From NCBI GenBank assembly GCA_030038475.1, contig JASHOU010000155.1:1-43817 (forward strand): DNA of 43,817 bases. The letters run 5' to 3'. The notes under the pieces are model-generated. The model did no database searches. It was not told the DNA's origin and saw nothing but the letters and a program-made list of their open reading frames with translations. The position numbers and the translations under genes are program-made. Within the stretch, counting starts at the first letter, position 1; every line of letters starts with the position of its first letter. Shown piece by piece: positions 8,401 through 43,817 of this stretch. This DNA is from Terriglobales bacterium. Lineage in GTDB: Bacteria > Acidobacteriota > Terriglobia > Terriglobales > Acidobacteriaceae.

Positions 8401-8799
8401 TTTCGGCCCGGCAACCTTTAATTTAAAGGTCAATTGCGCTGAGGCCCCGACCTCCACGCGGATCACGGGTGAAATCTCTGGCGACATCCCGTCTGCTTCG
8501 GCGCGCGCTGAATATTCGCCCGGTGGAAGCAGATCCAGAGTGAATCGCCCGGCGGAATCCGTGGCTGAGTGGTAGCGGACGCCGGCCGATACGCGGATGG
8601 CAACGATATCGGCATTGGTGATCACCGCTCCCTGGGCGTCTAAGACAATTCCGCGCACAGCGCCGGTGGAGGCATCCTGAGCCAAGGCGATGGCAGTAAT
8701 CGCAATGATAAGAATGAGTTCAAAAAGGAATGCGCGGAAGAGAATTCTTGGAAAAAATTGACGAATCGCAAACAGAAGTGGCTCGCCGCAGCGGCACAT
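5423..8799 (-). pseudogene. Oar-type TonB-dependent receptor, split by a frameshift
   Basis: Two overlapping frames together encode one outer-membrane receptor of about 1,125 residues. The N-terminal part (ATG at 8799) has a long hydrophobic signal segment. It is followed by a carboxypeptidase-regulatory-like domain (about 45-130) with 'GAVRGIVLDAQGAVI', then a plug domain with 'LPLNGRRYTDLLLLSPGV' and the first barrel strands. After 'NAAVNCP' (around 6495-6525) the frame degrades. The other frame picks up at once with 'PWQQYATSQVAAFEPGF' and runs through the remaining barrel to a C-terminal aromatic residue (RLNF). The shift fits loss of one base (or gain of two). Both halves are otherwise intact, so the break is recent or a sequencing error. 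Such receptors import large or complexed nutrients in Acidobacteriota; the substrate is unknown. Confidence 0.85.
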
Positions 8800-30415: not shown

Positions 30416-32803
30416 TTACTTGTACAACAAGTACTTTTCCCTGAGCAAGACAAACTGATTCAGGCGCTCCTGCCAGTCTTCCGCAATTCGTCTTGGATCT
30501 TCACCGGTGTTGATCGCGTCGAACACGGACTGATTTACCAAAAGGTCCCCCATTTTTTCCAGCTTGAAATCGTTGGGATAGAGTCGATGTAGCGCCGCCG
30601 CCAGCTCAATTCCGAGCTCCGGCGAATCCAGAGTGTTGCGATCCTGTAGCACCAGGTTGACGCCCTCGCATCGTTCGCCGGCAAAGTTGCTCGATGCGGG
30701 AGTAAACACAATGGGCACGAAGCGCACGCTCTGAATCTCACGCTGGTTCAAATAGGCGGCCAGTTCCCTGCCCTTGATCCAGGGTGCTCCGATGACTTCA
30801 AACGGAGTATCGGTGCCGCGTCCGACTGAAACGTTCGTTCCTTCAATCATCGCCACTCCCGGATAAAGCGTCGCCTGATTCAGATCGCGCAAATTGGGCG
30901 AAGGATTCGTCCACGCAAGGCCGGTCGAATCGAACCAGTCCCCTCGTTGCCAATCCTCCATCGTAACCACCGTAAGTCGCGCGTCGATGTGCCGCTCGGT
31001 ATTGGTCATCTTTGCCAGCTCGCCAAGAGTCATTCCGTGACGCACCGGCTCAGGAAAGTAATTGGTAAACTTTTCGTGGCCTTCATCGGAAACCGGACCT
31101 TGCACGAATGAGCCGGCGATCGGATTCGGCCGGTCGAGAACGATGACTTCGATGCCCAGCTTGGCCGCAGCCTCCAGAAAATATCCGACTGTCGCTTCGT
31201 ACGTATAAAAGCGCACGCCAGCATCCGCCAGATCGATCACCACCGCATCGAGTTGCTTGAGCACGTCCATCGGCGGATGGCGAGCCGCGTCGCTCACCCC
31301 ATACACGCTATAGACCTGAACCCCGGTCACCGCGTCTTTTTCGTTCTTGACGTCGGTGGTATCGAGCGTTCCGGCCACGCCATGTTCGGGGCTGAAAATT
31401 GCATCAAGGGAAATCCCCGGCACATTCGCCAGCACATCGATGGTGCGCCGGCCTTCGGAATCTATGCCGGTCTGATTTGTCAGCAACCCAATGCTTCGCG
31501 GAGCACCGCCCTTCGCCGGATGCAGCGCCGCAAACTTTGTCTCCTCAAGCACGTCGATTCCGGTTTTCACCGTCCCGTTCCGCACAGCGAGCTTGCGTGC
31601 GGCACTCTGCATTTCGTTGTAGCCGGTGATGGTTGCTGCTCGCATCTTCTCCGCTTCTGCCGGATCGAGTGCCAGCGCCGCAGCCACGGCGGTCCCAATT
31701 TTTGTCCTGAGTGGTACGGCGCTTCCCTTGTCTTTGGGCGGCACAACACGCATGTGCACCGCATTCGTCAGCAGCACGATGTATGTTTTCGTCGTGGGAT
31801 CGATCCACAGCGAGGTTCCCGTAAATCCGGTATGGCCGAAGCTGCCCACCGGCAGTAACTCTCCGCGATTGGTAGATAAAGGAGAATCGATATCCCAGCC
31901 GAATCCGCGGAGCACCCTGCCGTCGACCGGCTGTTGGGGGGCAGTCATTTTGGCGATCGTCGCTGAGGTCAACACGCCGCGTCCGCCATCGAGCAAAGCC
32001 TGCGCGAAAATTGCCAGATCGTCCGCGGTAGAAAATACTCCCGCATGGCCCGCCACGCCGCCCATGCGACGAGCGCTGGGATCGTGCACCACACCACGCA
32101 GCAGCCGATGGTTTTCATCTTCTTCAGTTGGAGCGATGCGCGGTATCCACGACGCGGGAGGAAGAAAACGCGTCTCGTGCATCCCGAGCGGCATGAAAAT
32201 ATGCTTCGCAGAATATTCATCGAGTGACTCGCCCGAGAGCCGCTCGACCAGTGCTCCGAGCACTACAAAGTTGATATCGCTATAGACGAACGCCGCTCCC
32301 GGAGAGTGTTCCGGCGCGGCTTCATACGCCATGCGATACGCCGTTTCCTTGCCTTCCCAGGCCGTCGCCAAATCGAGATCGGGCGCAAGCCCCGAGTAGT
32401 GCACCAGCAATTGCCGGATCGTAATATCCTGCTTGCCGTTCTGGCCGAACTCGGGAAGATATTTCGCGACGGGATCGCTCATGCGAAACTTGCCCTGCTC
32501 CCAAAGCTGCATAATTGCGGTCGTCGTTGCGACCACCTTAGTGAGCGACGCACAATCGAAAACCGTGTCCAGCGTCATCGCTTCCGGGCGAGGTTCAATC
32601 GCGCGCCTGCCATACGCTTTGCGATAAGCCACACGCCCGTCGTGGCCGACGATGAGAACCGCTCCTGGAATCTGTTGCTGGGCGATCGCGTCGTTAATAA
32701 TGGAATCAAGAACGGCGAGTCGGGAGTCAAGTGGAACTTCGCAAAAGCCAACAGCGGGAAACAGCACGATGAAAAACAGCAGTTTGTGCGGTAAGCGTCT
32801 CAC
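30416..32803 (-). CDS. Fused AmiE-like serine hydrolase and NamZ (DUF1343) muramidase
   Basis: The 795-residue protein has a signal peptide (to about 20; the Cys after it lacks a proper lipobox). Residues about 25-375 form a beta-lactamase-family serine hydrolase with S86-L-T-K89, a Y-S-D-I-N motif and H-T-G in 'FGHTGFTG'. Residues about 415-795 are DUF1343, the NamZ family of exo-beta-N-acetylmuramidases, with 'IGLLTNQTGID', 'FSPEHGVAG', 'DLADAGVRFYTYE' and 'VLDRPNPIAG'. In Bacillus, AmiE (same hydrolase family) removes the peptide and NamZ releases the terminal MurNAc. One secreted chain holding both could act on wall fragments in sequence. It is divergent from a second hydrolase gene and murQ. 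Confidence 0.9.
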   Translation of the reverse strand: MRRLPHKLLFFIVLFPAVGFCEVPLDSRLAVLDSIINDAIAQQQIPGAVLIVGHDGRVAYRKAYGRRAIEPRPEAMTLDTVFDCASLTKVVATTTAIMQLWEQGKFRMSDPVAKYLPEFGQNGKQDITIRQLLVHYSGLAPDLDLATAWEGKETAYRMAYEAAPEHSPGAAFVYSDINFVVLGALVERLSGESLDEYSAKHIFMPLGMHETRFLPPASWIPRIAPTEEDENHRLLRGVVHDPSARRMGGVAGHAGVFSTADDLAIFAQALLDGGRGVLTSATIAKMTAPQQPVDGRVLRGFGWDIDSPLSTNRGELLPVGSFGHTGFTGTSLWIDPTTKTYIVLLTNAVHMRVVPPKDKGSAVPLRTKIGTAVAAALALDPAEAEKMRAATITGYNEMQSAARKLAVRNGTVKTGIDVLEETKFAALHPAKGGAPRSIGLLTNQTGIDSEGRRTIDVLANVPGISLDAIFSPEHGVAGTLDTTDVKNEKDAVTGVQVYSVYGVSDAARHPPMDVLKQLDAVVIDLADAGVRFYTYEATVGYFLEAAAKLGIEVIVLDRPNPIAGSFVQGPVSDEGHEKFTNYFPEPVRHGMTLGELAKMTNTERHIDARLTVVTMEDWQRGDWFDSTGLAWTNPSPNLRDLNQATLYPGVAMIEGTNVSVGRGTDTPFEVIGAPWIKGRELAAYLNQREIQSVRFVPIVFTPASSNFAGERCEGVNLVLQDRNTLDSPELGIELAAALHRLYPNDFKLEKMGDLLVNQSVFDAINTGEDPRRIAEDWQERLNQFVLLREKYLLYK

Positions 32804-32929
32804 GTCTGCTGTGACTTTACATGAGCAGCGAGACGCGGCTCAAGGCTGAGGTTACAAACGATGCTCTTGAGGTAACTCCCTGTTTGCCCCGCATCGGCTG
32901 CGTTTGCTATAACGCAATCAGTTCCAACA

Positions 32930-34078
32930 ATGGCCTTGAATCTGGCACCTGCGAACCCAGAATCCGGCTTTTCCTTCCTCGTGCGCAAGCTCGCGGGACA
33001 GGATGATCGGTTTCAAGTTGCCTTCGCCGTCGTTCAAAAGGCCATTGCGGCACGCGCGTTCCCCGCTTGCGCGTTGGCGGTTACCTTCCGCGGAGAGCTC
33101 ATCGCCCATAAAGCTTTTGGCCATTTCACCTACGATTCAGGCTCACCGGAAGTTTCGACGGCGAGCATTTTCGATCTTGCTTCGCTCACGAAAGTTGTAG
33201 CTACCACCACGATGGCAATGGTGCTCTACGAACGCGGGCTGCTTGACCTGGAAGCGCCCGTAGCGGCAATCGTGCCGGAGTTTGTTGGTCCAGCGACGGA
33301 AGATGATGCCCGGCGGCGCGAAGTTACACTGCGCATGTTGCTCGCTCACAGCTCGGGACTTCCCGCCTACGAAAAACTGTTCCTGCACGCCCGCACTCGC
33401 GAAGACCTGCTGCGAGCCGTGTTCGGCACTCCACTCGTCTCCGATCCCGGAACCCACGCCGAGTACAGCGACATCGGCTTCATCATTCTTGGTACCGCGC
33501 TGGAGCGCCTCGCAGATGAAGCCCTCGACGTTTTTTCCCAGCGGGAAATCTTCGGCCCCCTCGGCATGAGGCACACAACTTTTGCTCCAGCGTCAGACTT
33601 GAAAAACTCCATCCCCCCAACTGCCGATGATCGTAAATTTCGCCACCGAATCATCCAGGGCGAGGTGCAAGACGAAAACGCAAGCGTGCTCGGCGGCGTT
33701 GCCGCACACGCCGGCTTGTTTTCGACAGCCGATGATCTGGCGGTTTTCGCTCATGCCATGCTCAACGGCGGGCATCCCATCTTGCGCGCCGCAACGGTCG
33801 AACTGTTCACGCGGCGCGAATCGAAGCCCGCAGGGACCTCGCGGGCGCTTGGCTGGGACACGCCGTCGGCTCCATCGCAATCGGGAAAGTATCTGTCATC
33901 CCGCACCTTTGGGCATCTCGGTTACACCGGCACCTCCTTGTGGATCGACCCCGACCGCCAGGTTTCGATAACGTTGCTAACCAATCGCACCTGGCCCGAC
34001 TGCCAGAACGAGGCAATCAAACAAATCCGTCCGGCTTTTCATGACGCGGTGATCGAAGCCTTGGAGAAGAACGCTTGA
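32930..34078 (+). CDS. AmiE-like serine hydrolase, no signal peptide
   Basis: The 382-residue protein belongs to the beta-lactamase (PF00144) serine-hydrolase family. Its S85-L-T-K88 box (DLASLTKVVATTT) is nearly identical to that of the fused protein next door, and it has Y-S-D-I-G and H-L-G-Y-T-G. It lacks a signal peptide, so it should stay in the cytoplasm. Its stop overlaps the TTG start of murQ (TTGA), so the two are coupled. That favours a muropeptide role, as for AmiE of Bacillus, which splits MurNAc from its peptide, over beta-lactam resistance. An esterase role is not excluded. Confidence 0.85.
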   Translation: MALNLAPANPESGFSFLVRKLAGQDDRFQVAFAVVQKAIAARAFPACALAVTFRGELIAHKAFGHFTYDSGSPEVSTASIFDLASLTKVVATTTMAMVLYERGLLDLEAPVAAIVPEFVGPATEDDARRREVTLRMLLAHSSGLPAYEKLFLHARTREDLLRAVFGTPLVSDPGTHAEYSDIGFIILGTALERLADEALDVFSQREIFGPLGMRHTTFAPASDLKNSIPPTADDRKFRHRIIQGEVQDENASVLGGVAAHAGLFSTADDLAVFAHAMLNGGHPILRAATVELFTRRESKPAGTSRALGWDTPSAPSQSGKYLSSRTFGHLGYTGTSLWIDPDRQVSITLLTNRTWPDCQNEAIKQIRPAFHDAVIEALEKNA

Positions 34079-35034
34079 GGCGCAGAAACAAAAAACATAG
34101 CGCCTCGAATCTTCGAAGAACTGGCGTCGAACTCCGTCGCCTTACCACCGAGAAAATGAACTCGGCATCTGCCAACCTCGATAGCAAAAGCGCACTCGAA
34201 ATCGCCCGCATCGTCAACCGTGAGGATGCGAAGGTTGCGGCCGCTGTCAGTCGCGCCCTGCCGCAGATCGCGCGAGCGATCGATCTGATCGCCGATGCGC
34301 TCTCCCAAGGCGGACGACTTATCTATGTCGGAACCGGCACCAGCGGACGCATCGCCGCACTCGACGCCGTCGAATGCCCACCCACTTTTGACGTTGACCA
34401 AAGGCTCGTACAGTTCATCATTGCCGGTGGCAATAAGGCGCTCGCCGCTGCTGTTGAGGCCGATGAGGACTCTCGCGAACTCGGGCGCAGAGAAATCGCG
34501 AAAAAGAAGCCAACATCAAAAGATGTAGTCGTAGGAATCGCCGCCAGTGGGCGCACTCCGTTCACCGTCGCGGCCCTCGAATATGCGCGCGCTTACGGCG
34601 CAAAAACCGTTGCCGTTGTCTGCAATCGAAAATCTGCGCTCGGCAAGGTCGCTCATGTAGAAATCGTAGCGGAGGTTGGCGCGGAGGTTGTCGCCGGCTC
34701 GACCCGCATGAAAGCCGGTACGGCTCAGAAGATGATTCTAAACATGCTGTCGACAGGAGCGATGGCTCGCCTTGGCTATGTGTACGGAAACCTGATGGTG
34801 AATGTTCGCCCGAAAAACGAAAAGCTGGCCGAACGCGGAGTACGCATTCTGGAGAATGCCACGGGACTCGGCCGGCGAACCGCGCGCAGACTGCTTGCCG
34901 ATGCGCAAAACCGTGTTCCGGTAGCGTTGGTAATGGCAAAAGCTGGAGTCAGTCGCGTTGACGCCGATGCCGCGCTGAGAAAGGCTCAGGGTCAAGTCCG
35001 CCTCGCGATAAGGCGGTCAAAGGCCACATATTAG
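34075..35034 (+). CDS. murQ: N-acetylmuramic acid 6-phosphate etherase
   Basis: MurQ removes the lactyl ether from MurNAc-6-phosphate, giving GlcNAc-6-phosphate and D-lactate. The 319-residue product has the SIS fold with 'YVGTGTSGRIAALDAVECPPTF', split here as GTGTSGR (87-92) and the catalytic-type E100. Also visible are 'ADEDSREL' (E131), 'GIAASGRTPFTVAALEYA' and 'GSTRMKAGTAQKMILNMLST'. The start is TTG, with GGAG upstream; the conserved L-T-T-E-K-M-N comes at residue 23, so a later ATG would cut it. The first 30 bases contain a GAGGCGC/GCGCCTC hairpin that might tune translation. No MurNAc kinase is visible nearby. Confidence 0.93.
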   Translation: MRRRNKKHSASNLRRTGVELRRLTTEKMNSASANLDSKSALEIARIVNREDAKVAAAVSRALPQIARAIDLIADALSQGGRLIYVGTGTSGRIAALDAVECPPTFDVDQRLVQFIIAGGNKALAAAVEADEDSRELGRREIAKKKPTSKDVVVGIAASGRTPFTVAALEYARAYGAKTVAVVCNRKSALGKVAHVEIVAEVGAEVVAGSTRMKAGTAQKMILNMLSTGAMARLGYVYGNLMVNVRPKNEKLAERGVRILENATGLGRRTARRLLADAQNRVPVALVMAKAGVSRVDADAALRKAQGQVRLAIRRSKATY

Positions 35035-35076
35035 AATGAAGTCGGAGCTCGCACTTCTCGAGAACCACTTAAGTTT

Positions 35077-36378
35077 ATGGATAAGCTCATAATCCGCGGC
35101 GGCAATCCTCTGCTCGGCACGGTTCGCGTCAGTGGAGCAAAGAATGCCGCACTGCCGTGCATGGCGGCAGCGTTGCTGACCGACGAACCCGTGATTCTCG
35201 AAAACATTCCGCAAGTGCGAGACATCGAGACAACACGCAAACTGCTTGCCGCCATGGGCGCTGAAGTGGAACTTGGCTACGGGCGTGCGCATCACCGGAC
35301 GACGATTTGTGCGCGCACACTGGCCGCGCCCGAAGCCTCTTACGAACTGGTAAAGACTATGCGGGCCTCGACACTAGTCTTAGGGCCGCTTGTAGCGCGC
35401 TGCGGGCGCGCCCACGTCTCATTGCCAGGCGGATGTGCAATTGGTGCGCGACCGATCGATTTGCATATCAAAGGCCTCGAGCGGCTAGGCGCCAGGATCA
35501 CGCAAGAACACGGCTACGTCCAGGCTGTCGCCGACCGACTGAAAGGCGCGGAAATCGTTTTCGACAAAATTACCGTCACGGGCACGGAAGATCTGCTGAT
35601 GGCGGCAACGCTGGCCGAGGGCGAGACTATTATGCAGAATTGCGCTCGCGAGCCAGAAGTTGCCGATCTTGCCGCTTTGCTCCATGCCATGGGCGCGAAG
35701 ATTCAAGGCGCGGGAACGTCGACGATATACGTGAAAGGAGTCGCCAAACTTCACGGCGCGAAGCACCGTATCATTCCCGACCGCATTGAAGCGGGAACCT
35801 TCATCGTTGCGGGTGCACTGACCGGCGGCGACCTCAATGTTGCGGGATGCGATCCCACGCACCTTACTGCGATCCTGCAAAAACTCGCGGAGACCGGTGT
35901 GAAGACCACATTGAAAACCGACTCGGTGCGCGTCATGGGCGATCAACCGCTGGCGGCGGCCGACCTGAATACTGAAGAATATCCCGGCTTTCCCACCGAC
36001 ATGCAGGCGCAGTTTATGGCGCTCGCCACGCAGGCTGCGGGCACTTCGATAATCACAGAAAATATTTTTGAAAACCGGTTCATGCACGCGCTGGAACTGG
36101 TTCGCATGGGCGCGAACGTCAAGATCGAAGGCCGGCGGGCCGTCGTGCGCGGCGTGACTCCGCTTAGCGCCGCCGCCGTTCTCGCTTCGGATTTGCGCGC
36201 CTCGGCTTCGCTGGTGCTCGCAGCTTTGGTCGCCGACGGTGAAACCATCATCGACCGCATTTATCACCTCGACCGGGGCTACGAACATATTGAAGAAAAA
36301 TTCAAAGCCATCGGCGCTGAAATTCGCCGCGTAGGCGACATTTTCCCCAAGCGAGCTGTAGCTCCCGCCCACGCGTGA
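35077..36378 (+). CDS. murA: UDP-N-acetylglucosamine 1-carboxyvinyltransferase
   Basis: MurA makes the first committed step of peptidoglycan synthesis, moving enolpyruvate from PEP to UDP-GlcNAc. The 433-residue protein begins 'MDKLIIRGG', has the K22-N23 substrate pair, and carries the catalytic C120 in 'LPGGCAIGARPIDLHI'. That Cys is the residue attacked by fosfomycin. 'RIEAGTFIVAGALTGG' and the closing 'DRIYHLDRGYEHIEEKFKAIGA' complete the two-domain inside-out barrel. It follows murQ by 42 bases, so recycled amino sugar and new wall synthesis sit in one transcription unit. Confidence 0.96.
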   Translation: MDKLIIRGGNPLLGTVRVSGAKNAALPCMAAALLTDEPVILENIPQVRDIETTRKLLAAMGAEVELGYGRAHHRTTICARTLAAPEASYELVKTMRASTLVLGPLVARCGRAHVSLPGGCAIGARPIDLHIKGLERLGARITQEHGYVQAVADRLKGAEIVFDKITVTGTEDLLMAATLAEGETIMQNCAREPEVADLAALLHAMGAKIQGAGTSTIYVKGVAKLHGAKHRIIPDRIEAGTFIVAGALTGGDLNVAGCDPTHLTAILQKLAETGVKTTLKTDSVRVMGDQPLAAADLNTEEYPGFPTDMQAQFMALATQAAGTSIITENIFENRFMHALELVRMGANVKIEGRRAVVRGVTPLSAAAVLASDLRASASLVLAALVADGETIIDRIYHLDRGYEHIEEKFKAIGAEIRRVGDIFPKRAVAPAHA

Positions 36379-36691: not shown

Positions 36692-37474
36692 ATGAAAGTT
36701 GTCGTTCTGTGCGGTGGATTGGGCACCCGTCTCCGGGAGGAGACGGAATTCCGCCCGAAACCTATGGTCGAGATCGGAGGACGTCCCATTCTGTGGCACA
36801 TCATGAAGATGTATGCCCATTACGGCATGCGCGAATTTATTCTCTGCCTCGGCTATCGTGGCAACATGATCAAAGATTACTTCCTGAATTACGAGGCGAT
36901 GAACAGCGACTTCAAGATTTGTCTGGGACGCAAATCCCACATCCAGTTCATGGGCGCTCACCAGGAGCAGGATTTCGCCGTAACGCTTGCCGATACCGGC
37001 CTCGAGACCATGACCGGTGGCCGTTTGAAGCGGGTTGCGCGCTATCTCGAAAACGACGATACCTTTTTACTCACCTATGGTGACGGACTCAGCAACGTCA
37101 ATATCACTTGCCTGCTCGACTTTCATCGCAAGCACGGCCGCGTAGCGACGGTCACTTCAGTCCCTCCCGTCTCCCGCTTCGGCGTGCTCGAAACCGACGC
37201 GCAGGGCCAGGTCCAGCGCTTTATGGAGAAACCGAAGTCTAATGGTCTGATCAGCGCCGGGTTCTTCGTCTTCAACCGGCGCATACTCGATTATCTCGAT
37301 GGACCCCAGTGCATACTCGAACGCGAACCCATGGAACGCTTGGCGCGCGAAGGTCAACTTATGGCCTATCGCCACGACGGGTTTTTCTACGCCATGGATA
37401 CATACCGCGAGTACCAATACCTGAATGAGCTTTGGGCCAGTGACCGAACTCCATGGAAGGTGTGGTCGGAATGA
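36692..37474 (+). CDS. rfbF: Glucose-1-phosphate cytidylyltransferase
   Basis: RfbF joins CTP and glucose-1-phosphate to form CDP-glucose. The ATG at 36692 (AGGAA upstream) gives 260 residues. It shows the nucleotidyltransferase signature '[21 protein letters not shown]' (GGLGTRL at 9-15), '[21 protein letters not shown]', '[11 protein letters not shown]' and '[18 protein letters not shown]'. The E-x-x-x-x-P-K-P-M-V segment is typical of RfbF rather than of glucose thymidylyltransferases. It opens the operon, and its stop overlaps the next start (ATGA). Confidence 0.93.
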
Positions 37475-38475
37475 GTTCATTTTGGCGCGATCGCTCCGTC
37501 TTTGTCACCGGTGGCACAGGACTGCTTGGATCCTGGCTCGTGAAGCGGTTTATCGAGGCCGAAGCAAAAGTAGTTTGCCTGGTGCGCGACTGGGTTCCGC
37601 AAAGTGAACTTTTGCGCACTCGCCGTATCGAGCAAGTCAATACTGTGCGCGGCGACATCGTCGACCGCGAACTGTTGGAGCGCATTCTCGGCGAGTACGA
37701 AGTTGAAGTCGTCTTTCATCTCGCCGCCCAGGCCATTGTCGGGATCGCCAATCGTAATCCGATCTCGACTTTTTCCACCAACATACAAGGCACATGGAAT
37801 CTACTTGAGGCTTGCCGCCGCTCTCCATCGGTACTGTCTATTGTGGTGGCATCGTCTGACAAGGCCTATGGCAATCAGGACCATCTTCCTTACAACGAAA
37901 CGATGCCATTACAAGGTCGCCATCCTTACGATGTTAGTAAGTCGTGTGCCGACATGATTGCACAGACCTATGCGGCTACTTATAATCTGCCGGTCGCGAT
38001 CACGCGCTGTGGAAATTTTTACGGCGGCGGCGATTTGAACTGGAACCGGGTCGTCCCCGGCACGATTCGCTCCGTGATTCGCGGAGAACGGCCGGTGATT
38101 CGCTCCGACGGTAAATTCGTCCGCGATTATTTCTATATTGAAGATGGCGCCACTGCCTACATGCTGCTTGCCGAACGCCTCGCCTCGTATGCCGCCTTGC
38201 GAGGCCAAGCCTTCAATTTCTCAAACGAAAGCCAGGTTAGCGTGCTTGAGCTTGTTGATCTGATCTTGCGCAAAATGAAGTCTCCCCTGCGTCCCGATGT
38301 GTTGAACCATGCGAGTAATGAAATCCGCCACCAGTTCCTTAGCGCCGAACACGCACGAAGCGTGCTGAACTGGCAGCCACAGTTCACATTGGACTCCGGC
38401 CTCGATCGTACCATCGCCTGGTACCGAGATTTTCTTGGCGCACCCGCCGCGCTTGCCCATGCCGGTCGAGGATAA
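37471..38475 (+). CDS. rfbG: CDP-glucose 4,6-dehydratase-like SDR
   Basis: The 334-residue enzyme is an extended short-chain dehydrogenase. It has '[18 protein letters not shown]' for NAD binding, '[17 protein letters not shown]', the S-S-D-K-A-Y-G segment seen in CDP-glucose dehydratases (TDEVYG in dTDP ones), and the Y-D-V-S-K catalytic pair. It should make CDP-4-keto-6-deoxyglucose. The ATG at 37471 overlaps the rfbF stop; an ATG 18 bases earlier would lengthen the overlap. It ends seven bases before rfbH. It is slightly shorter than many RfbG proteins. Confidence 0.85.
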
Positions 38476-38482
38476 GTCATTC

Positions 38483-39829
38483 ATGACAATGATGACTCGC
38501 AAAACCGGCGCCCAGATTCGCGAAGAGATGCACGCGCTTGTGAAGGAGTACTATCACGTCGTTCTGGCACCGCAGGCCTTCGTACCTGGCGAAAGCACCG
38601 TTCCTGTTTCCGGCAAAGTGTTGGACTGGACCGAACTCGAACACCTCGTCGACGCCACGCTTGACGCATGGCTTACCACCGGACGCTTTGCCGCGCAGTT
38701 CGAACGCGAGTTTGCTGCCTTCATGGGAGTGCGCTGTGCCTCGCTGGTTAACTCCGGATCTTCCGCTAACCTGGCCGCTCTTTCCTGCTTGACCTCCGCG
38801 TCGCTCGGCGAACGTAGGCTCCGTGCAGGCGACGAAGTTATTACTGTCGCCGCTGGGTTTCCTACAACGGTCAATCCGATTGTTCAGAACAGACTTATCC
38901 CGGTATTTGTCGACGTCAACATTCCTACTTACAATGCAGACACAACTCAACTTGCGGAAGCAATTTCCGAACGCACTAAGGCCATCGTTCTGGCCCACAC
39001 TCTCGGCAATCCCTTTGATCTTGACGCCGTCATGGATTTGGCCGCGAGGCACAATCTTTGGGTCATTGAGGATTGCTGCGACGCCGTTGGCTCACTTTAC
39101 AAAGGACGTGGTGTCGGCACATTCGGCCAATTAGCCACAACCAGTTTTTATCCCGCGCACCACATCACCATGGGGGAAGGTGGGTGCGTACTTGCCCAAT
39201 CGCCTGCGCTCAAGAAGATAGTCGACTCCTTTCGCGATTGGGGCCGGGATTGCTGGTGCGATCCCGGAAAAGCTAACACTTGCGGCCGCCGTTTTGATTG
39301 GCAACTCGGGGATCTGCCCGCTGGATACGATCACAAATACATTTACAGCCACATTGGTTACAACCTCAAAGCGACTGACTTTCAGGCGGCTGTCGGTGTC
39401 GCGCAACTCAAGAAGCTGCCCGGCTTCATCGCCGCGCGGCGCGCGAACTTCGCCAAGTTACATGCCGCTTTGAGGGATCTCGAAGACATTTTCATTTTGC
39501 CCCGAGCCACTGATCATTCAGACCCAAGCTGGTTTGGCTTCCCGCTCGCCGTGCGAAAGGATGCGCTCACAACCCGTAATCAGATCGTTCGGTTTCTAGA
39601 ATCGCGAAAGATAGCCACACGCCTGCTTTTCGGTGGCAACCTGCTGCGTCAGCCGGCCTATCGCGATATTCCGCGGCGGCGCGTAATCGGCGATTTGCAG
39701 AACACAGACTTTGTCATGAACAACGTTTTCTGGATCGGCCTTTATCCCGGCATTACGCAACCGATGATCGATTACATGGTGGACATGTTCCATCAGATTC
39801 CGAGAGCCGCTGCCGTTCATGCGAAGTAA
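38483..39829 (+). CDS. rfbH: CDP-4-keto-6-deoxyglucose 3-dehydrase (E1)
   Basis: RfbH (E1) is a PMP-dependent, iron-sulfur dehydrase that removes the C3 hydroxyl with an E3 reductase. The 448-residue protein has the aminotransferase fold but His in place of the PLP Lys: [15 protein letters not shown]226 by alignment with the usual Lys. It keeps the [2Fe-2S] cysteines C257, C259 and C267, with C198/C199 near the fourth site. The ATG at 38483 follows GAGGATAAG. No E3-type ferredoxin reductase gene lies beside it in the window, so the electron donor must come from elsewhere. The product would be CDP-4-keto-3,6-dideoxyglucose. Confidence 0.94.
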
Positions 39830-39883
39830 CCTGCGAAAATACGAGTTACTGACAGTAAGTTGTCGGTCTATAAGTAAGTAATC

Positions 39884-40987
39884 ATGAACTACGCAACTCC
39901 AAACCGGTTGGCAGGCGATCTCGATAATATTCTCGAGCGAACCGAACCGTTGTGGCAGGAACTGCGCGGCCAGCGCATTCTGATTACGGGGGCCACGGGA
40001 TTTTTCGGATGCTGGCTGCTCGAAAGCTTCGCATGGGCAAATCGCCGGCTCGATCTTAACGCACAGGCCGTTGCATTAGCGCGGCATCCCGAGTCGCTTG
40101 CGGAGAAAGCTCCCCACTTAGCGCAGGATTCAGCCATCAGCATGCACGCCGCTGACGTTCGCCGCGGCGATTTTCCCAACGGTACGTTTTCCCACGTCAT
40201 TCATGCGGCGACCGAGGCCAGTGCAGAGTTAAACAAAAATGCCCCTCTGGTAATGTTCGACACAATTGTTGAAGGCACGCGTCGAGCACTTGAGTTCTCT
40301 CTTGCCCACTCCGTCGACAAATTTCTATTTGTCAGTTCGGGCGCCGTCTATGGCAGCCAGCCGGCCCAGGTTGCACAGCTAACTGAGTCTTTCGAAGGTG
40401 GTCCCGATCCTTTGGACCCAGCGAATGCCTATGCCGAGGGTAAGCGCGCCACAGAACTATTGTGCGCTCTTACAGCGTCAACGAGTTTACAAATCAAGCT
40501 GGCGCGCTGCTTCGCTTTTGTTGGTCCTTATATGAAGCTCGACACGCACTTTGCAATCGGCAACTTCATCGCTGATTCTCTGGAGCGGCGTCCGATTCGA
40601 GTTCATGGCGACGGCTCGGCGGTGCGCTCCTATCTTTATGCCTCCGACTTGATGGTTTGGCTCTGGACGATTCTGTTTAAAGGAAAGTCATTACGCGCCT
40701 ATAACGTCGGCTCCGAGGAAGCGCTGAATATCGCGACTCTTGCCCGCGAAGTCACTGCTGCGGTGGCACCCGAACTTGATGTCGAAATCGCTGCCAAGAC
40801 AAATGCGGGCGCACCTGTGCACCGTTACGTGCCGAGCACGGCTCGCGCGCGTGAAGAGTTGGGACTGAAGGCTGAGATACCGTTGCACGAAGCGATTCAC
40901 CGGACCCAAACATGGTTTTCGCAACGTGGATTCAGTCGTCAGGAGCTTTCTATAGCCAAAGTTACGGCCCGAGGCACCTATGTTTAA
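39884..40987 (+). CDS. NAD-dependent epimerase/dehydratase (SDR) of the sugar operon
   Basis: The 367-residue extended SDR has 'ILITGATGFFGCWLLESFAW' for the cofactor, 'FSHVIHAATEAS', 'FLFVSSGAVYG' and the Y-A-E-G-K catalytic pair. Its tail has 'VHRYVPSTARAREELGLK', as in nucleotide-sugar epimerases and reductases. After RfbFGH, a C4 reductase of the paratose/abequose type (RfbS/RfbJ) or a YerF-like reductase of a branched sugar would fit; the sequence alone cannot choose. It lies 54 bases after rfbH and 90 bases before the ThDP enzyme. Confidence 0.82.
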   Translation: MNYATPNRLAGDLDNILERTEPLWQELRGQRILITGATGFFGCWLLESFAWANRRLDLNAQAVALARHPESLAEKAPHLAQDSAISMHAADVRRGDFPNGTFSHVIHAATEASAELNKNAPLVMFDTIVEGTRRALEFSLAHSVDKFLFVSSGAVYGSQPAQVAQLTESFEGGPDPLDPANAYAEGKRATELLCALTASTSLQIKLARCFAFVGPYMKLDTHFAIGNFIADSLERRPIRVHGDGSAVRSYLYASDLMVWLWTILFKGKSLRAYNVGSEEALNIATLAREVTAAVAPELDVEIAAKTNAGAPVHRYVPSTARAREELGLKAEIPLHEAIHRTQTWFSQRGFSRQELSIAKVTARGTYV

Positions 40988-41077
40988 GCGCCGCCATTCT
41001 AACTTCTTAACTGTCTCTCGCGCGCGCAACTTTCGAAGCGAGGCGGAAAACAGCATCCAATCAGAGCTCCGTCAACC

Positions 41078-42883
41078 GTGAAACTTTCTGACTACATTGT
41101 CGGGCGCCTCAGCGAATGGGGTGTGCGCCACATTTTTCTTGTTACTGGCGGCGGCGCAATGCACCTCAACGACTCGATTGGCAATGAGCCGCGCATTCAG
41201 TACGTCTGTAATCACCATGAACAAGCATCCGCCATGGCCGCGGAAGCCTATGCGCGCATCAGCGGCCGGTCTGGAGTGGTCAACGTCACCACCGGGCCCG
41301 GCGGCCTCAATGCACTCAACGGAGTCTTTGGCGCGTGGACCGATTCGGTGCCGATGCTTGTCATCTCCGGCCAAGTGAAACGTGAAACCTGCATGCGCTC
41401 GCTGGGCATCACCGGCCTGCGCCAGCTCGGAGATCAAGAATGCGACATCATTGCCATGGTCGCGAACATCACGAAATACGCGCAGTTGATCGACGATCCT
41501 CTATCGATCCGCTATCACCTCGAGCGCGCCTGGCATCTCGCGCAGAGTGGACGCCCCGGCCCATGCTGGCTCGATATTCCGGTCGATGTGCAGTCTGCGG
41601 CGGTCGATACGGCGAGCCTTCGCGGCTATGACCCGGCAGCAGACAAATCTTCTCAGACAGTCGCCTGTGATCGCCAACAGCTCAAAAGCCATTGCCGTGA
41701 GGTTATCCGCCGGATCCGAAGCGCCAAACGGCCTGTAATTCTGGGTGGCACCGGAGTGCGCGCCGCCCGTGCTGTCGCCGAATTCGACGAGCTTATCCAT
41801 CGGCTCAAGATACCTGTGACCACGGCTTGGACTCATGATCTAATTGCCTCCGACGATCCGCTCTTTTGTGGACGCCAGGGCACCATCGGCGATCGTGCCG
41901 GCAACTTTACGGTGCAAAATGCGGACGTTTTGCTGATCCTCGGATCGCGCCTCACCGTTCGCCAAACCAGTTATAACTGGCGATCATTCGCGCCGCGTGC
42001 CTTCAAGATTCAGGTCGATATCGATGCGGCTGAGTTTCGCAAACCCATGGTCCAACCCGATATGCCGATTCAGTGTGACCTCAAGCAGTTTCTGCAAGAG
42101 CTTCTCAACCAGTGTGAGTCCGACAATTACAGCCCCGGAGCCCACGCGGCGTGGCTAGCCTGGTGCCGTGAGCGCGTCGAACGCTATCCGGCCGTGCATG
42201 ATCGTCAGCGCCAGCCCGGACCTCCTTTGAATCCTTATTACTTCGTCGAGCAACTTTCATCTAAGCTCGCCAACGACGATGTTATCGTCTGCGGCAATGC
42301 CAGCGCTTGCATCGTGCCCTTCCAGGCGATCCGCTTGCGCAAACACCAGCGACTTATCTCTAATTCCGGTTCCGCCTCCATGGGCTACGATTTGCCCGCC
42401 TCTATTGGAGCGGCTTTCGCGCGTCCCGGCCGACGAGTCATCTGCCTTGCCGGAGACGGCAGCATTCAGATGAACATTCAGGAATTACAAACCATAGTTC
42501 ATCATCGCTTACCGGTCAAAATTTTTGTCTTGAATAACTCGGGTTACCTCTCTATGCGCATGACACAATCCGGCTTCTTCAGCCGTCTTACCGGCGAAAG
42601 CGCCGCAAGCGGAGTTTCTTTCCCGGATATCGTCAAGGTGGCATGCGCCTATGCTATTCCGTCAATTCGTATCGACCGCCAGTCGCAGATGGAACAAATC
42701 GATCGGGCGCTGGCGGCTGATGGTCCAGCACTGATCGACGTCCTGCTCGACGGCAATCAAGAGTTCGAACCGCGGTCGAAGGCAAGGCAGCTGCCCGATG
42801 GAAACATCGTCTCCCCCAATCTAGAGGACATGTACCCTTTCCTGCCTGAGACTGAACTAATGGACAATATGATCGAGGAATAA
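41078..42883 (+). CDS. ThDP-dependent acetolactate-synthase-like enzyme (YerE-like candidate)
   Basis: The 601-residue protein has the three-domain layout of acetolactate synthases: an N-terminal Pyr domain with the activating E48 (NHHEQAS), a central FAD/structural domain, and a C-terminal PP domain with the ThDP motif G459-D-G-S ending at N486-N487. The start is GTG. Branched-chain amino-acid genes are absent, and it sits in a CDP-sugar operon. YerE of Yersinia, a flavoprotein of this family, adds a two-carbon unit from pyruvate to CDP-4-keto-3,6-dideoxyglucose in making yersiniose. RfbFGH upstream would supply that substrate. The assignment to YerE function is an inference. Confidence 0.83.
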   Translation: MKLSDYIVGRLSEWGVRHIFLVTGGGAMHLNDSIGNEPRIQYVCNHHEQASAMAAEAYARISGRSGVVNVTTGPGGLNALNGVFGAWTDSVPMLVISGQVKRETCMRSLGITGLRQLGDQECDIIAMVANITKYAQLIDDPLSIRYHLERAWHLAQSGRPGPCWLDIPVDVQSAAVDTASLRGYDPAADKSSQTVACDRQQLKSHCREVIRRIRSAKRPVILGGTGVRAARAVAEFDELIHRLKIPVTTAWTHDLIASDDPLFCGRQGTIGDRAGNFTVQNADVLLILGSRLTVRQTSYNWRSFAPRAFKIQVDIDAAEFRKPMVQPDMPIQCDLKQFLQELLNQCESDNYSPGAHAAWLAWCRERVERYPAVHDRQRQPGPPLNPYYFVEQLSSKLANDDVIVCGNASACIVPFQAIRLRKHQRLISNSGSASMGYDLPASIGAAFARPGRRVICLAGDGSIQMNIQELQTIVHHRLPVKIFVLNNSGYLSMRMTQSGFFSRLTGESAASGVSFPDIVKVACAYAIPSIRIDRQSQMEQIDRALAADGPALIDVLLDGNQEFEPRSKARQLPDGNIVSPNLEDMYPFLPETELMDNMIEE

Positions 42884-42923
42884 GGACATTACCATAAGAG
42901 TAAGTACCACAATCACCCATATT

Positions 42924-43817
42924 ATGAGCGGAACCGATATTTTCGAAGAGTTATTTGTCTTAGAGCTGGCCAACAACCACCTCGGCGACTTGCAGCGCGG
43001 CCTTAAGATCATCAGTAACTACGCCCAGGTGGTTCGCTTTAATAACGTACGTGCCGCCATCAAACTTCAGTTTCGCGATGTGGAGAGCTTCATCCACCGG
43101 GACTTCCGCCATCGCAACGACATCCGCTACGTCAAGAAGACGATCGAAACGCGACTGTCAGCCCTGGACTATGCCCAGATGGTGCAGGCCATTCGCGAAG
43201 CGAGCTGTATTCCAATGGCGACTCCGTTCGATGAGAGCTCGGTCGACTTTTGCTGTGAACTTGGGATTCCCGTCCTCAAGATCGCCAGCTCCGACTGCAA
43301 CGATTGGATTCTAATCGAGAAAATCGCGAAAACGAAGAAACCGGTCATCGTTTCGACGGGTGGCTCTTCATTAAAAGATATCGACGATTTAGTCACTTTT
43401 TTTGCTAATCGTCACATCCCTCTGGCCATCAACCACTGCGTCTCGCTTTATCCGTGTGAAGACGGCGACCTTGAGCTGAACCAAATCGATTTTTTGCGCA
43501 ATCGTTACCCCAATCACGTTATTGGGTTCTCCACACACGAGTATCACGATTGGGCCTGTTCCATGCTGATTGCCTACGCCAAGGGTGCGCGGACGTTCGA
43601 ACGGCACATCGACATCGAGAGCACGACGGTTTCTCCATACTGTTCCGTCCCGGAACAGATCGATACCTGGTTCAAGGCCTTTCAGCGGGCGAAGCAAATG
43701 TGTGGCGCTCCGGGAACGCAAAAACGCCTTCCACCGCAACAGGAAATCGCATACCTAGACGGGCTAGTCCGTGGAGTCTATGCCAAACGCAATCTGCCCG
43801 TGGGCCATGTTCTGCAC
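42924..43817 (+). CDS. Divergent NeuB-family (sialic acid synthase-like) enzyme, 3' end outside the window
   Basis: The frame runs open for 298 codons to the last base. It is a NeuB-type TIM barrel, which condenses PEP with an aldose: 'LELANNHLGD' (E-x-x-x-NH-x-G), 'AIKLQFRD', 'MATPFDESSV', 'VLKIASSDCND', 'VIVSTGGSS', 'CVSLYPCE', 'GFSTHEYHDWA' and 'FERHIDIE' all map to family motifs. The last residues begin a SAF (antifreeze-like) domain (RGVYAKRNLPVGHVL). The motifs differ from classical NeuB (NNH for INH, KLQ for KFQ, STHEY for SDH), so the substrate may not be ManNAc. It starts 40 bases after the ThDP gene with only a weak ribosome site. Confidence 0.85.
   Translation, partial: MSGTDIFEELFVLELANNHLGDLQRGLKIISNYAQVVRFNNVRAAIKLQFRDVESFIHRDFRHRNDIRYVKKTIETRLSALDYAQMVQAIREASCIPMATPFDESSVDFCCELGIPVLKIASSDCNDWILIEKIAKTKKPVIVSTGGSSLKDIDDLVTFFANRHIPLAINHCVSLYPCEDGDLELNQIDFLRNRYPNHVIGFSTHEYHDWACSMLIAYAKGARTFERHIDIESTTVSPYCSVPEQIDTWFKAFQRAKQMCGAPGTQKRLPPQQEIAYLDGLVRGVYAKRNLPVGHVLH

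What the first reader, a model, noticed from the sequence alone, without database searches (positions are those of the whole stretch)
36692..43817. CDP-sugar operon combining RfbFGH, an SDR, a ThDP enzyme and a NeuB-type synthase
RfbF, RfbG and RfbH should give CDP-4-keto-3,6-dideoxyglucose. Next come an SDR, an acetolactate-synthase-like enzyme and a divergent NeuB-family synthase, close together on one strand. RfbFGH plus a ThDP enzyme is known from yersiniose synthesis (YerE/YerF). Adding a PEP-condensing NeuB-type enzyme is not explained by that pathway. It could mean a new branched or chain-extended acidic sugar, or two sugar pathways in one operon.
Basis: partly seen in the sequence, partly recalled or inferred. 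Interest (0 to 1): 0.72.

Follow-up and report, generated by a model that had tools for sequence, protein, structure and literature searches.

The report
Sugar-branching operon with NeuB donor synthase
This bacterial gene cluster appears to build an unusual branched surface sugar, with a relative of sialic acid synthase making the carbon chain that a second, vitamin-B1-dependent enzyme attaches to the sugar; if so, many genes now labelled sialic acid synthase do a different job.

Summary
In detail: RfbF, RfbG, RfbH, SDR, ThDP enzyme and NeuB-like synthase lie in order on the + strand. NeuB continues onto contig C46 (197-base exact overlap), giving a 375-aa NeuB+SAF protein followed by a FkbM methyltransferase and a GT2. 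The next genes are not a nonulosonic acid set, and the ThDP enzyme is YerE-like (best PDB match JanthE), not IlvB. The NeuB protein belongs to a separate clade (100/100) with the orphan structure 3G8R. Of 80 relatives chosen by NeuB alone, 71 have the ThDP gene within 4.1 kb; 7 of the other 9 genomes carry it elsewhere. CMP-sugar synthetase matches occur at 18 of 21 canonical NeuB loci but 3 of 80 of these. Around other YerE-like enzymes NeuB is replaced by HpaI-like, DmpG+DmpF or HMGL-like aldolases, or canonical NeuB, usually with a KdsC-like phosphatase. Each can make a 4-hydroxy-2-oxo acid, the donor type ErwE prefers; some sets have no partner. Best reading: NeuB makes, from PEP and an aldehyde, the 2-oxo-3-deoxy acid that the ThDP enzyme decarboxylates onto CDP-4-keto-3,6-dideoxyglucose, giving a neutral long-branched sugar. 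Aldehyde and product are unknown; no activity was tested.

The parts
36692..37474 (+). RfbF, glucose-1-phosphate cytidylyltransferase, 260 aa
   Evidence: TIGR02623 340 bits over cut-off 300; ORF
37453..38475 (+). RfbG, CDP-glucose 4,6-dehydratase-like, 340 aa
   Evidence: best model TIGR02622, 217 bits, below cut-off 278
38483..39829 (+). RfbH, CDP-6-deoxyhexulose 3-dehydrase, 448 aa
   Evidence: NF011936 717 bits over cut-off 423; C-X57-C-X1-C-X7-C
39884..40987 (+). extended SDR, 367 aa; proposed reductase or epimerase of the branched ketosugar (YerF-like role, inferred)
   Evidence: PF01370 112 bits; a match found in the stretch of 31 of 80 relatives
41078..42883 (+). YerE-like ThDP decarboxylase/carboligase, 601 aa, GDG(24)NN motif at 459, Glu48
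   Evidence: PF02776/PF00205/PF02775; best PDB match 8rph 8e-115 against 5e-69 for the next, an acetolactate synthase; tree
42924..43817 (+). NeuB-like PEP-dependent synthase, first 298 of 375 aa; rest on contig C46 (L003 18831-19261, minus strand) with SAF domain
   Evidence: PF03102 130 bits, SAF 22 bits; exact 197-base overlap; AF2 model of the L037 ortholog pLDDT 86, best PDB match 3g8r

Best explanation
One pathway to a long-branched CDP-sugar. (1) RfbF, RfbG and RfbH make CDP-4-keto-3,6-dideoxyglucose (family knowledge; the E3 reductase is not in the operon and was not sought). (2) The NeuB-like enzyme condenses PEP with a still unknown aldehyde, giving a 4-hydroxy-2-oxo-3-deoxy acid; where a relative's cluster holds a HAD phosphatase, this would remove a phosphate (inferred). 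(3) The YerE-like ThDP enzyme takes this acid as donor, removes CO2 and adds the acyl anion to the C-4 ketone, creating a tertiary alcohol with a polyhydroxylated branch whose 2' carbon is deoxy, as in caryophyllose (inferred). (4) The SDR reduces or epimerises the product and the ArnC-like GT2 moves the sugar to a polyprenyl phosphate (inferred). Shown here: the genes, their families, the NeuB-ThDP coupling, the separate NeuB clade, and replacement of NeuB by other enzymes of families that form 2-oxo acids.
For: Coupling: 71 of 80 NeuB relatives have ThDP within 4114 bp, 69 of those 71 on the same strand; 7 of the 9 others have a ThDP gene of 50-69% identity elsewhere in the genome; 11 of 11 other genomes of the window's phylum with a NeuB relative have it within 1.8 kb. 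Replacement beside the ThDP gene: DmpG+DmpF above NCBIfam cut-offs (L149; by similarity in L231, L232), HpaI-like (L144, L227, L152, L239-L241), HMGL-like (L280, L286), canonical NeuB plus KdsC-like phosphatase in 7 of 7 (KdsC model passed in L289). L227 (HpaI) and L228 (NeuB) are sisters in the ThDP tree (100/99) and both run ThDP, DHQS-like, partner, GT2. CMP-sugar synthetase matches: 3 of 80, against 18 of 21 canonical loci. Chemistry: ErwE does not use pyruvate and prefers 4-hydroxy-2-oxo acids (PMC12247030, passages). JanthE groups with DmpG-partnered enzymes and accepts 4-hydroxy-2-oxovalerate, though also pyruvate and others (PMC12188165, passages). Caryophyllose's branch is 1,3,4,5-tetrahydroxyhexyl, so 2'-deoxy (PMC5706390, passage). 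PEP and metal residues are invariant (roles recalled).
Against: No activity was tested and the aldehyde is unknown. An Rfb gene was found in only 40 of 80 relative loci (many stretches are short), so the acceptor may differ in some. RfbG scores below its cut-off. The window operon has no phosphatase or kinase of its own. Some YerE-like genes have no such partner: 3 of 26 in the window's phylum and 11 of 40 in another sample; 7 of these 14 are compact RfbFGH-ThDP-GT2-SDR sets, one more (L285) looks alike but its contig ends, and 6 are unexplained or sit by an E1 pair. Some partnerless enzymes are as much as 44-50% identical to the window's. Two genomes have NeuB and ThDP genes but on different contigs or far apart among those followed (L237, L236). 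Neighbourhood cannot prove the order of steps.
Confidence: 0.76

Rival explanations
1. The NeuB-like enzyme acts after the ThDP enzyme, adding PEP to the branched or freed sugar and giving a chain-extended acidic sugar.
For: NeuB enzymes make ulosonic acids (family knowledge); gene order ThDP then NeuB in the window and in 52 of 71 relatives.
Against: A CDP-sugar has no free aldehyde. No CMP-sugar synthetase match is in the window, in L003 or in 77 of 80 relatives. NeuB's place is taken by enzymes of families that make 2-oxo acids from small aldehydes.
Confidence: 0.08
2. Two independent sugar pathways sit side by side: a yersiniose-like CDP-sugar and a nonulosonic acid.
For: Surface polysaccharide clusters often pool several sugar pathways; the same genome has a separate canonical NeuB gene with a CMP-sugar synthetase match about 4 kb away on contig C89.
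Against: The two genes are coupled in records of many phyla; no NeuC match in 80 relatives and CMP-sugar synthetase matches in 3 of 80. The clade is separate from canonical NeuB, 100/100.
Confidence: 0.07
3. The ThDP enzyme uses pyruvate, as YerE does, and the NeuB-like protein tailors something unrelated.
For: Clusters with RfbFGH and a YerE-like gene but no recognisable partner exist (L242, L274, L275, L277, L279, L283, L284), some with ThDP enzymes 44-50% identical to the window's, so pyruvate may be enough for some members.
Against: This NeuB clade is almost never found without the ThDP gene, and where it is missing its place is often taken by other makers of 2-oxo acids.
Confidence: 0.07

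Closest known systems
Yersiniose A pathway (YerE/YerF, Yersinia pseudotuberculosis)
   Same: CDP-4-keto-3,6-dideoxyglucose as acceptor; ThDP decarboxylase adds a branch at C-4 (PMC12247030, passages)
   Different: Pyruvate is the donor; here a NeuB-type synthase is coupled to the ThDP gene
ErwE / erwiniose (Pectobacterium atrosepticum) and MMAR_2332 / caryophyllose (Mycobacterium marinum)
   Same: YerE-like enzymes using hydroxylated 2-oxo acids as donors to form long branches; erwiniose has 10 carbons (PMC8657720, passage), which fits 6 + 5 - CO2
   Different: Their donor-making genes were not named in the passages read; the word NeuB does not occur in PMC12247030
JanthE (PDB 8rph, Janthinobacterium sp. 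HH01)
   Same: Best PDB match of the window ThDP enzyme, 35% identity
   Different: JanthE groups with enzymes next to DmpG+DmpF and shares the CDG motif of two of them, L231 and L232; the window enzyme has GDG and groups with NeuB-partnered enzymes
3G8R, putative SpsE of Chromobacterium violaceum
   Same: Best sequence and fold match of the NeuB-like protein; same side of the 100/100 branch
   Different: Structural-genomics entry named by similarity; falls with the second subclade of this NeuB group (86/89)
N-acetylneuraminate synthase NeuB
   Same: TIM barrel plus SAF; PEP and metal residues kept
   Different: 116 bits against the equivalog cut-off of 400; Asn184 and Arg314 positions are Ser and Ile; no CMP-sugar synthetase nearby

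Membership tests
YerE-like ThDP carboligase | ThDP-binding motif and catalytic Glu (recalled) | tested here: met
   GDG(24)NN at 459, Glu48
YerE-like ThDP carboligase | closer to a characterised YerE-like enzyme than to housekeeping acetolactate synthase | tested here: met
   JanthE 8e-115 against 5e-69; own IlvB 31% identity and outside the YerE-like set
YerE-like ThDP carboligase | adds a decarboxylated 2-oxo acid to an isolated ketone | not testable with these tools
   needs an enzyme assay
Pfam NeuB family | PF03102 above gathering score, with SAF | tested here: met
   130.4 bits (22.1) and 22.1 bits (21)
N-acetylneuraminate synthase (equivalog) | TIGR03569 cut-off | tested here: not met
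   116 of 400 bits
N-acetylneuraminate synthase (equivalog) | N-acetyl-sugar contact residues Asn184 and Arg314 (roles recalled) | tested here: not met
   Ser174 and Ile306 at these places (alignment, residues)
Nonulosonic acid pathway | CMP-sugar synthetase near NeuB | tested here: not met
   no match in window or L003; 3 of 80 relatives; 18 of 21 controls, some of them weak hits
CDP-3,6-dideoxyhexose pathway | RfbF, RfbG, RfbH | tested here: met
   RfbF and RfbH pass equivalog cut-offs; RfbG is best on TIGR02622 but below its cut-off
CDP-3,6-dideoxyhexose pathway | E3 reductase for the RfbH step | not tested
   not in the operon; the rest of the genome was not searched for it
Yersiniose pathway | pyruvate as donor, no donor-making enzyme | tested here: inconclusive
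   a coupled NeuB argues against it, but donor use was not assayed
Erwiniose/caryophyllose-type long-branched sugar | 4-hydroxy-2-oxo acid donor | not testable with these tools
   inferred from partner replacement

The most novel reading that the evidence does not exclude
A whole clade of NeuB-family proteins (573 matching stretches in one capped scan, of which 80 were examined; it includes PDB 3G8R) are not sialic-type synthases but donor factories: they make 2-oxo-3-deoxy acids from PEP that are spent by YerE-like ThDP enzymes. Donor synthesis is a replaceable module (this NeuB clade, canonical NeuB+KdsC, HpaI-like, DmpG+DmpF, HMGL-like), so the neighbour gene predicts the branch, and a PEP-derived ulosonic acid serves as a decarboxylated C-C building block instead of being CMP-activated.
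Probability: 0.65. Interest if true: 0.76.

Novelty: new variant of a known kind. Interest (0 to 1): 0.63.

Why it matters
Long-branched sugars such as caryophyllose and erwiniose are known, but the origin of their branch is not described in the passages and listings seen here. A rule 'the neighbouring 2-oxo-acid enzyme makes the donor' would make donor substrates of many uncharacterised YerE-like enzymes predictable, including that of JanthE, which is being engineered for tertiary alcohols. It would also correct the naming of a large NeuB clade and give the structure 3G8R a function.

Tried and rejected
Plasmid searches with the ThDP and NeuB proteins gave only acetolactate-synthase-level hits (17 records, 34.2% identity or less) and one Streptomyces NeuB-like hit. 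An AF2 model of the ThDP enzyme from one sequence was useless (pLDDT 31) and was not used. Rejected: 'ThDP enzyme is IlvB' and 'next genes complete a nonulosonic set'. My own label was wrong at first: L137, L138, L139 and L140 were called ALS by assumption. The loci of L137, L139, L140 and of G249 turned out to be HpaI-KR-DHQS-like-ThDP-SDR cassettes, and L138 sits by RfbFGH. The control of canonical NeuB loci left out G097, because its ThDP neighbour was already known; G136, G109 and G348 also have canonical-type NeuB next to ThDP. One control, L208, has a NeuB that groups with L145's and a KdsC-like match, yet no ThDP match in the stretch fetched. Some control CMP-synthetase hits are weak (39-50 bits, E limit 1e-4). 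The NeuB tree's bootstrap had not settled and it warns that long branches meet. The ThDP tree holds 59 rows picked before the 40-locus sample; those 40 are not in it. One search returned L155 again and L243, and L312; L243 and L312 were not used.

Papers: searches listed none that I could see linking a NeuB-type synthase to YerE-like enzymes; 'NeuB', 'sialic' and 'phosphoenolpyruvate' do not occur in the main text of PMC12247030. The library lacks most subscription papers, the JanthE discovery paper and Rombouts 2009, so this is not proof of absence from print. PMC13354803, PMC12507525 and PMC4403928 were searched for terms without use; PMC4183827 was opened by mistake (outline only).
Full report
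What is in the sequence. The six genes lie on the + strand in the order given: RfbF 36692-37474, RfbG 37453-38475, RfbH 38483-39829, an extended SDR 39884-40987, a ThDP enzyme 41078-42883 and a NeuB-like gene from 42924 to the window end. RfbF and RfbH pass their equivalog cut-offs (340 over 300; 717 over 423). RfbG's best model is CDP-glucose 4,6-dehydratase, but at 217 bits it is below the cut-off of 278. RfbH keeps the four-cysteine spacing C-X57-C-X1-C-X7-C (that this is the [2Fe-2S] site is recalled).

Beyond the window. The window is contig C25 of genome G000, and its last 197 bases are exactly the end of contig C46 on the other strand. Read across, the NeuB-like gene is in frame and gives 375 aa with NeuB and SAF domains. 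A FkbM-family methyltransferase and a GT2 that resembles PgfS and ArnC, below their cut-offs, follow. Then come, on the opposite strand, GtrA-like and PMT-like membrane proteins, and then a UbiA-HAD, DprE1-like and short-chain dehydrogenase set. The join is supported by L037, a single-contig relative with the order RfbF, G, H, SDR, ThDP, NeuB, FkbM, GT2 and, further on, UbiA-HAD (L037 has about 1.2 kb more between SDR and ThDP, read by eye as a methyltransferase gene). No CMP-sugar synthetase match is in the window or C46. The genome does hold another NeuB (303 bits, contig C89) with a CMP-sugar synthetase match about 4 kb away, so the window gene is not the genome's only NeuB-family gene.

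The ThDP enzyme. Its best PDB relative is 8rph (8e-115; next, an acetolactate synthase, 5e-69). PMC12188165 names 8rph as JanthE, a YerE-like enzyme from Janthinobacterium (passages). In a 59-row tree it sits with NeuB-partnered enzymes from many phyla; the genome's own IlvB (31% identity) lies outside.

The NeuB-like protein. It scores 116 bits on TIGR03569 (cut-off 400). Its best PDB match is 3g8r (4e-63), ahead of meningococcal NeuB (1.6e-22), and an AF2 model of the L037 ortholog (pLDDT 86) finds 3g8r first, then NeuB and PseI, later KDO8P and DAHP synthases. In a 59-row tree the two ThDP-associated subclades and 3g8r are one side of a branch (100/100) against 24 canonical NeuB proteins (bootstrap not settled, long-branch warning given). 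Three canonical proteins that sit by YerE-like genes (L145, L147, L148) fall in three separate places on the other side, so NeuB proteins seem to have been paired with such enzymes more than once. Glu14, Lys47, Gln49, Thr100, Lys119, Ser122, Tyr176, His205, Glu226 and His228 are invariant in alignments of 10 and of 18 proteins; they match PEP and metal residues of NeuB (roles recalled). The positions of NeuB Asn184 and Arg314 hold Ser and Ile. So the PEP half is kept and the N-acetyl-sugar half is not.

Coupling of the two genes. These were chosen by NeuB alone. In 71 of 80 a ThDP match lies within 4114 bp (median 264), on the same strand in 69 of 71. Of the other 9, whole-genome search finds a ThDP gene at 50-69% identity in 7; the last two (L082, L103, contigs of 3-4 kb) show only matches of 32-35%. 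In 396 genomes of the window's phylum (probably Acidobacteriota, from the closest named relatives), 12 have a NeuB relative at E <= 1e-30, and the 11 besides this genome all have ThDP within 1.8 kb. Record titles name Acidobacteria, Proteobacteria, Planctomycetes, Verrucomicrobia, Myxococcales, Microcystis, Actinobacteria, Elusimicrobia, Cyclobacteriaceae and others. As control, 20 canonical NeuB loci from the top of a PF03102 search plus the own C89 locus gave no ThDP match in 21 stretches; a 22nd, G097, was left out because its ThDP neighbour was already known. CMP-sugar synthetase matches occur in 18 of these 21 (union of two queries, 16 each, some weak), in 3 of 80 relatives and 0 of 11 phylum loci. 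Against a simple picture: at least one Rfb gene was found in only 40 of 80 loci, RfbF+G+H+ThDP in 29.

What replaces NeuB. I then searched with the ThDP protein and looked at its neighbours. In 396 genomes of the window's phylum, 26 hits in 25 genomes divide as: NeuB of the window's subclade 6, second NeuB subclade 6, canonical-type NeuB 4, HpaI-like aldolase 5, DmpG+DmpF 1, no such partner 3, contig end right after ThDP 1. In 369 genomes of the class of L067's genome, 7 hits: window-subclade NeuB 2, the same but unlinked 1, second subclade 1, HpaI-like 1, DmpG+DmpF 2. In the phyla of L076's and L099's genomes, 67 of 288 and 11 of 282 genomes have hits. Of the 67 I fetched 30 (odd ranks 1 to 59; the lowest eight were not sampled), and of the 11, ten. 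These 40 show NeuB 19 (window subclade 4, second subclade 7, both 1, canonical 7), HpaI-like 4, DmpG 2, HMGL-like 2, NeuB elsewhere in the genome 1, compact sets of RfbFGH, ThDP, GT2 and SDR without partner 7 (one, L285, with its contig ending before any Rfb gene), a neighbouring E1 alpha/beta pair 1, unexplained 3, short contig 1. The eleventh of the second phylum, G400, has RfbFGH, ThDP, SDR and GT2 together and its NeuB gene elsewhere (L236, L099). Model support: DmpG 399 bits over 286 and DmpF 375 over 282 (L149); HpaI-like 27.2 over 25 in L276 but 24.8, just under, in L144; HMGL-like over cut-off in L280 and L286. All 7 canonical NeuB cases also have a KdsC-like match (L289 passes TIGR01670, 127 over 107), against 1 of 21 canonical controls; L147 and L148 have none. 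A HAD phosphatase match is found in 30 of 80 window-subclade loci and in 0 of 21 controls.

Reading. The enzymes that take NeuB's place belong to families that, from pyruvate or PEP and an aldehyde, make 4-hydroxy-2-oxo acids (established chemistry of these families; the members here were not assayed). PMC12247030 (passages) reports that ErwE couples a hydroxy-functionalised 2-oxo acid to CDP-4-keto-3,6-dideoxyglucose, does not use pyruvate and prefers 4-hydroxy-2-oxo acids, and that MMAR_2332 of the caryophyllose pathway has a similar preference. Caryophyllose's branch is a 1,3,4,5-tetrahydroxyhexyl group (PMC5706390, passage): the missing hydroxyl at 2' is what a 2-oxo-3-deoxy donor would leave. 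Erwiniose has ten carbons (PMC8657720, passage), as 6 + 5 - CO2 gives. A further check: JanthE groups with DmpG-partnered enzymes and shares the CDG motif of L231 and L232, so the rule predicts 4-hydroxy-2-oxovalerate as its donor; PMC12188165 reports that it accepts this acid with benzaldehyde, but also pyruvate, 2-oxobutanoate and others (passages), so the check is weak. I therefore read the window operon as one pathway in which NeuB makes the donor for the ThDP enzyme. The acid is spent by decarboxylation, so the sugar should be neutral, not acidic. The compact sets without partner fit the yersiniose case, where pyruvate is the donor.

How sure, and what is open. The gene coupling and the replacement pattern are computed results. 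The direction of metabolite flow, the aldehyde, the need for a phosphatase in the window's own cluster, the role of the SDR and the final sugar are inferred. Searches of the open literature did not show this NeuB link, but most subscription papers are not held, among them the JanthE discovery paper.

Noticed in passing
L152, L239, L240, L241 and L227: A cassette of HpaI-like aldolase, FabG-like SDR, dehydroquinate-synthase-like protein, YerE-like ThDP enzyme and extended SDR; no Rfb match was seen in the parts shown for the first four, L227 has RfbFGH. The DHQS-like relative in L072 is best on TIGR04425, below its cut-off (280 of 400). It suggests a cyclised or cyclitol-like branched sugar.
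   Followed up: partly
L028 10956-12712; L050, L072, L075, L089: DHQS-like and FabG-like SDR genes also occur with the NeuB type, in L050, L072, L075 and L089 with an FGGY kinase-like match.
   Followed up: partly
L030-L035: The second NeuB subclade has a C-terminal cupin domain (Pfam Cupin_2 passed in L030 and L035, the two scanned; weak likeness to sugar isomerases); it too lies next to YerE-like ThDP genes.
   Followed up: partly
L150 and L301: YerE-like ThDP genes beside a dehydrogenase E1 alpha/beta pair (Pfam in L301, by eye in L150) and a short-chain dehydrogenase, with no aldolase found.
   Followed up: no
window 30416-36378: A beta-lactamase-like protein that seems fused to a NamZ-like part, a second beta-lactamase-like gene, a MurQ-like SIS protein and a MurA-family enzyme lie just upstream of rfbF; looks like muropeptide recycling (by eye; only the last two were run on Pfam).
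   Followed up: no
window 5423-8799, minus strand: A TonB-receptor-like gene (by eye) appears in two overlapping frames (ORFs 6340-8799 and 5423-6460), a probable frameshift.
   Followed up: no
L003 8049-11818, minus strand: UbiA-HAD fusion, DprE1-like and short-chain dehydrogenase genes of a decaprenylphosphoryl-ribose/arabinose type pathway near the sugar cluster.
   Followed up: no
L286 5741-8346: An HMGL-like aldolase next to a PfkB-family kinase whose best NCBIfam models are KDG kinase types, below cut-off; both upstream of a YerE-like ThDP gene.
   Followed up: partly
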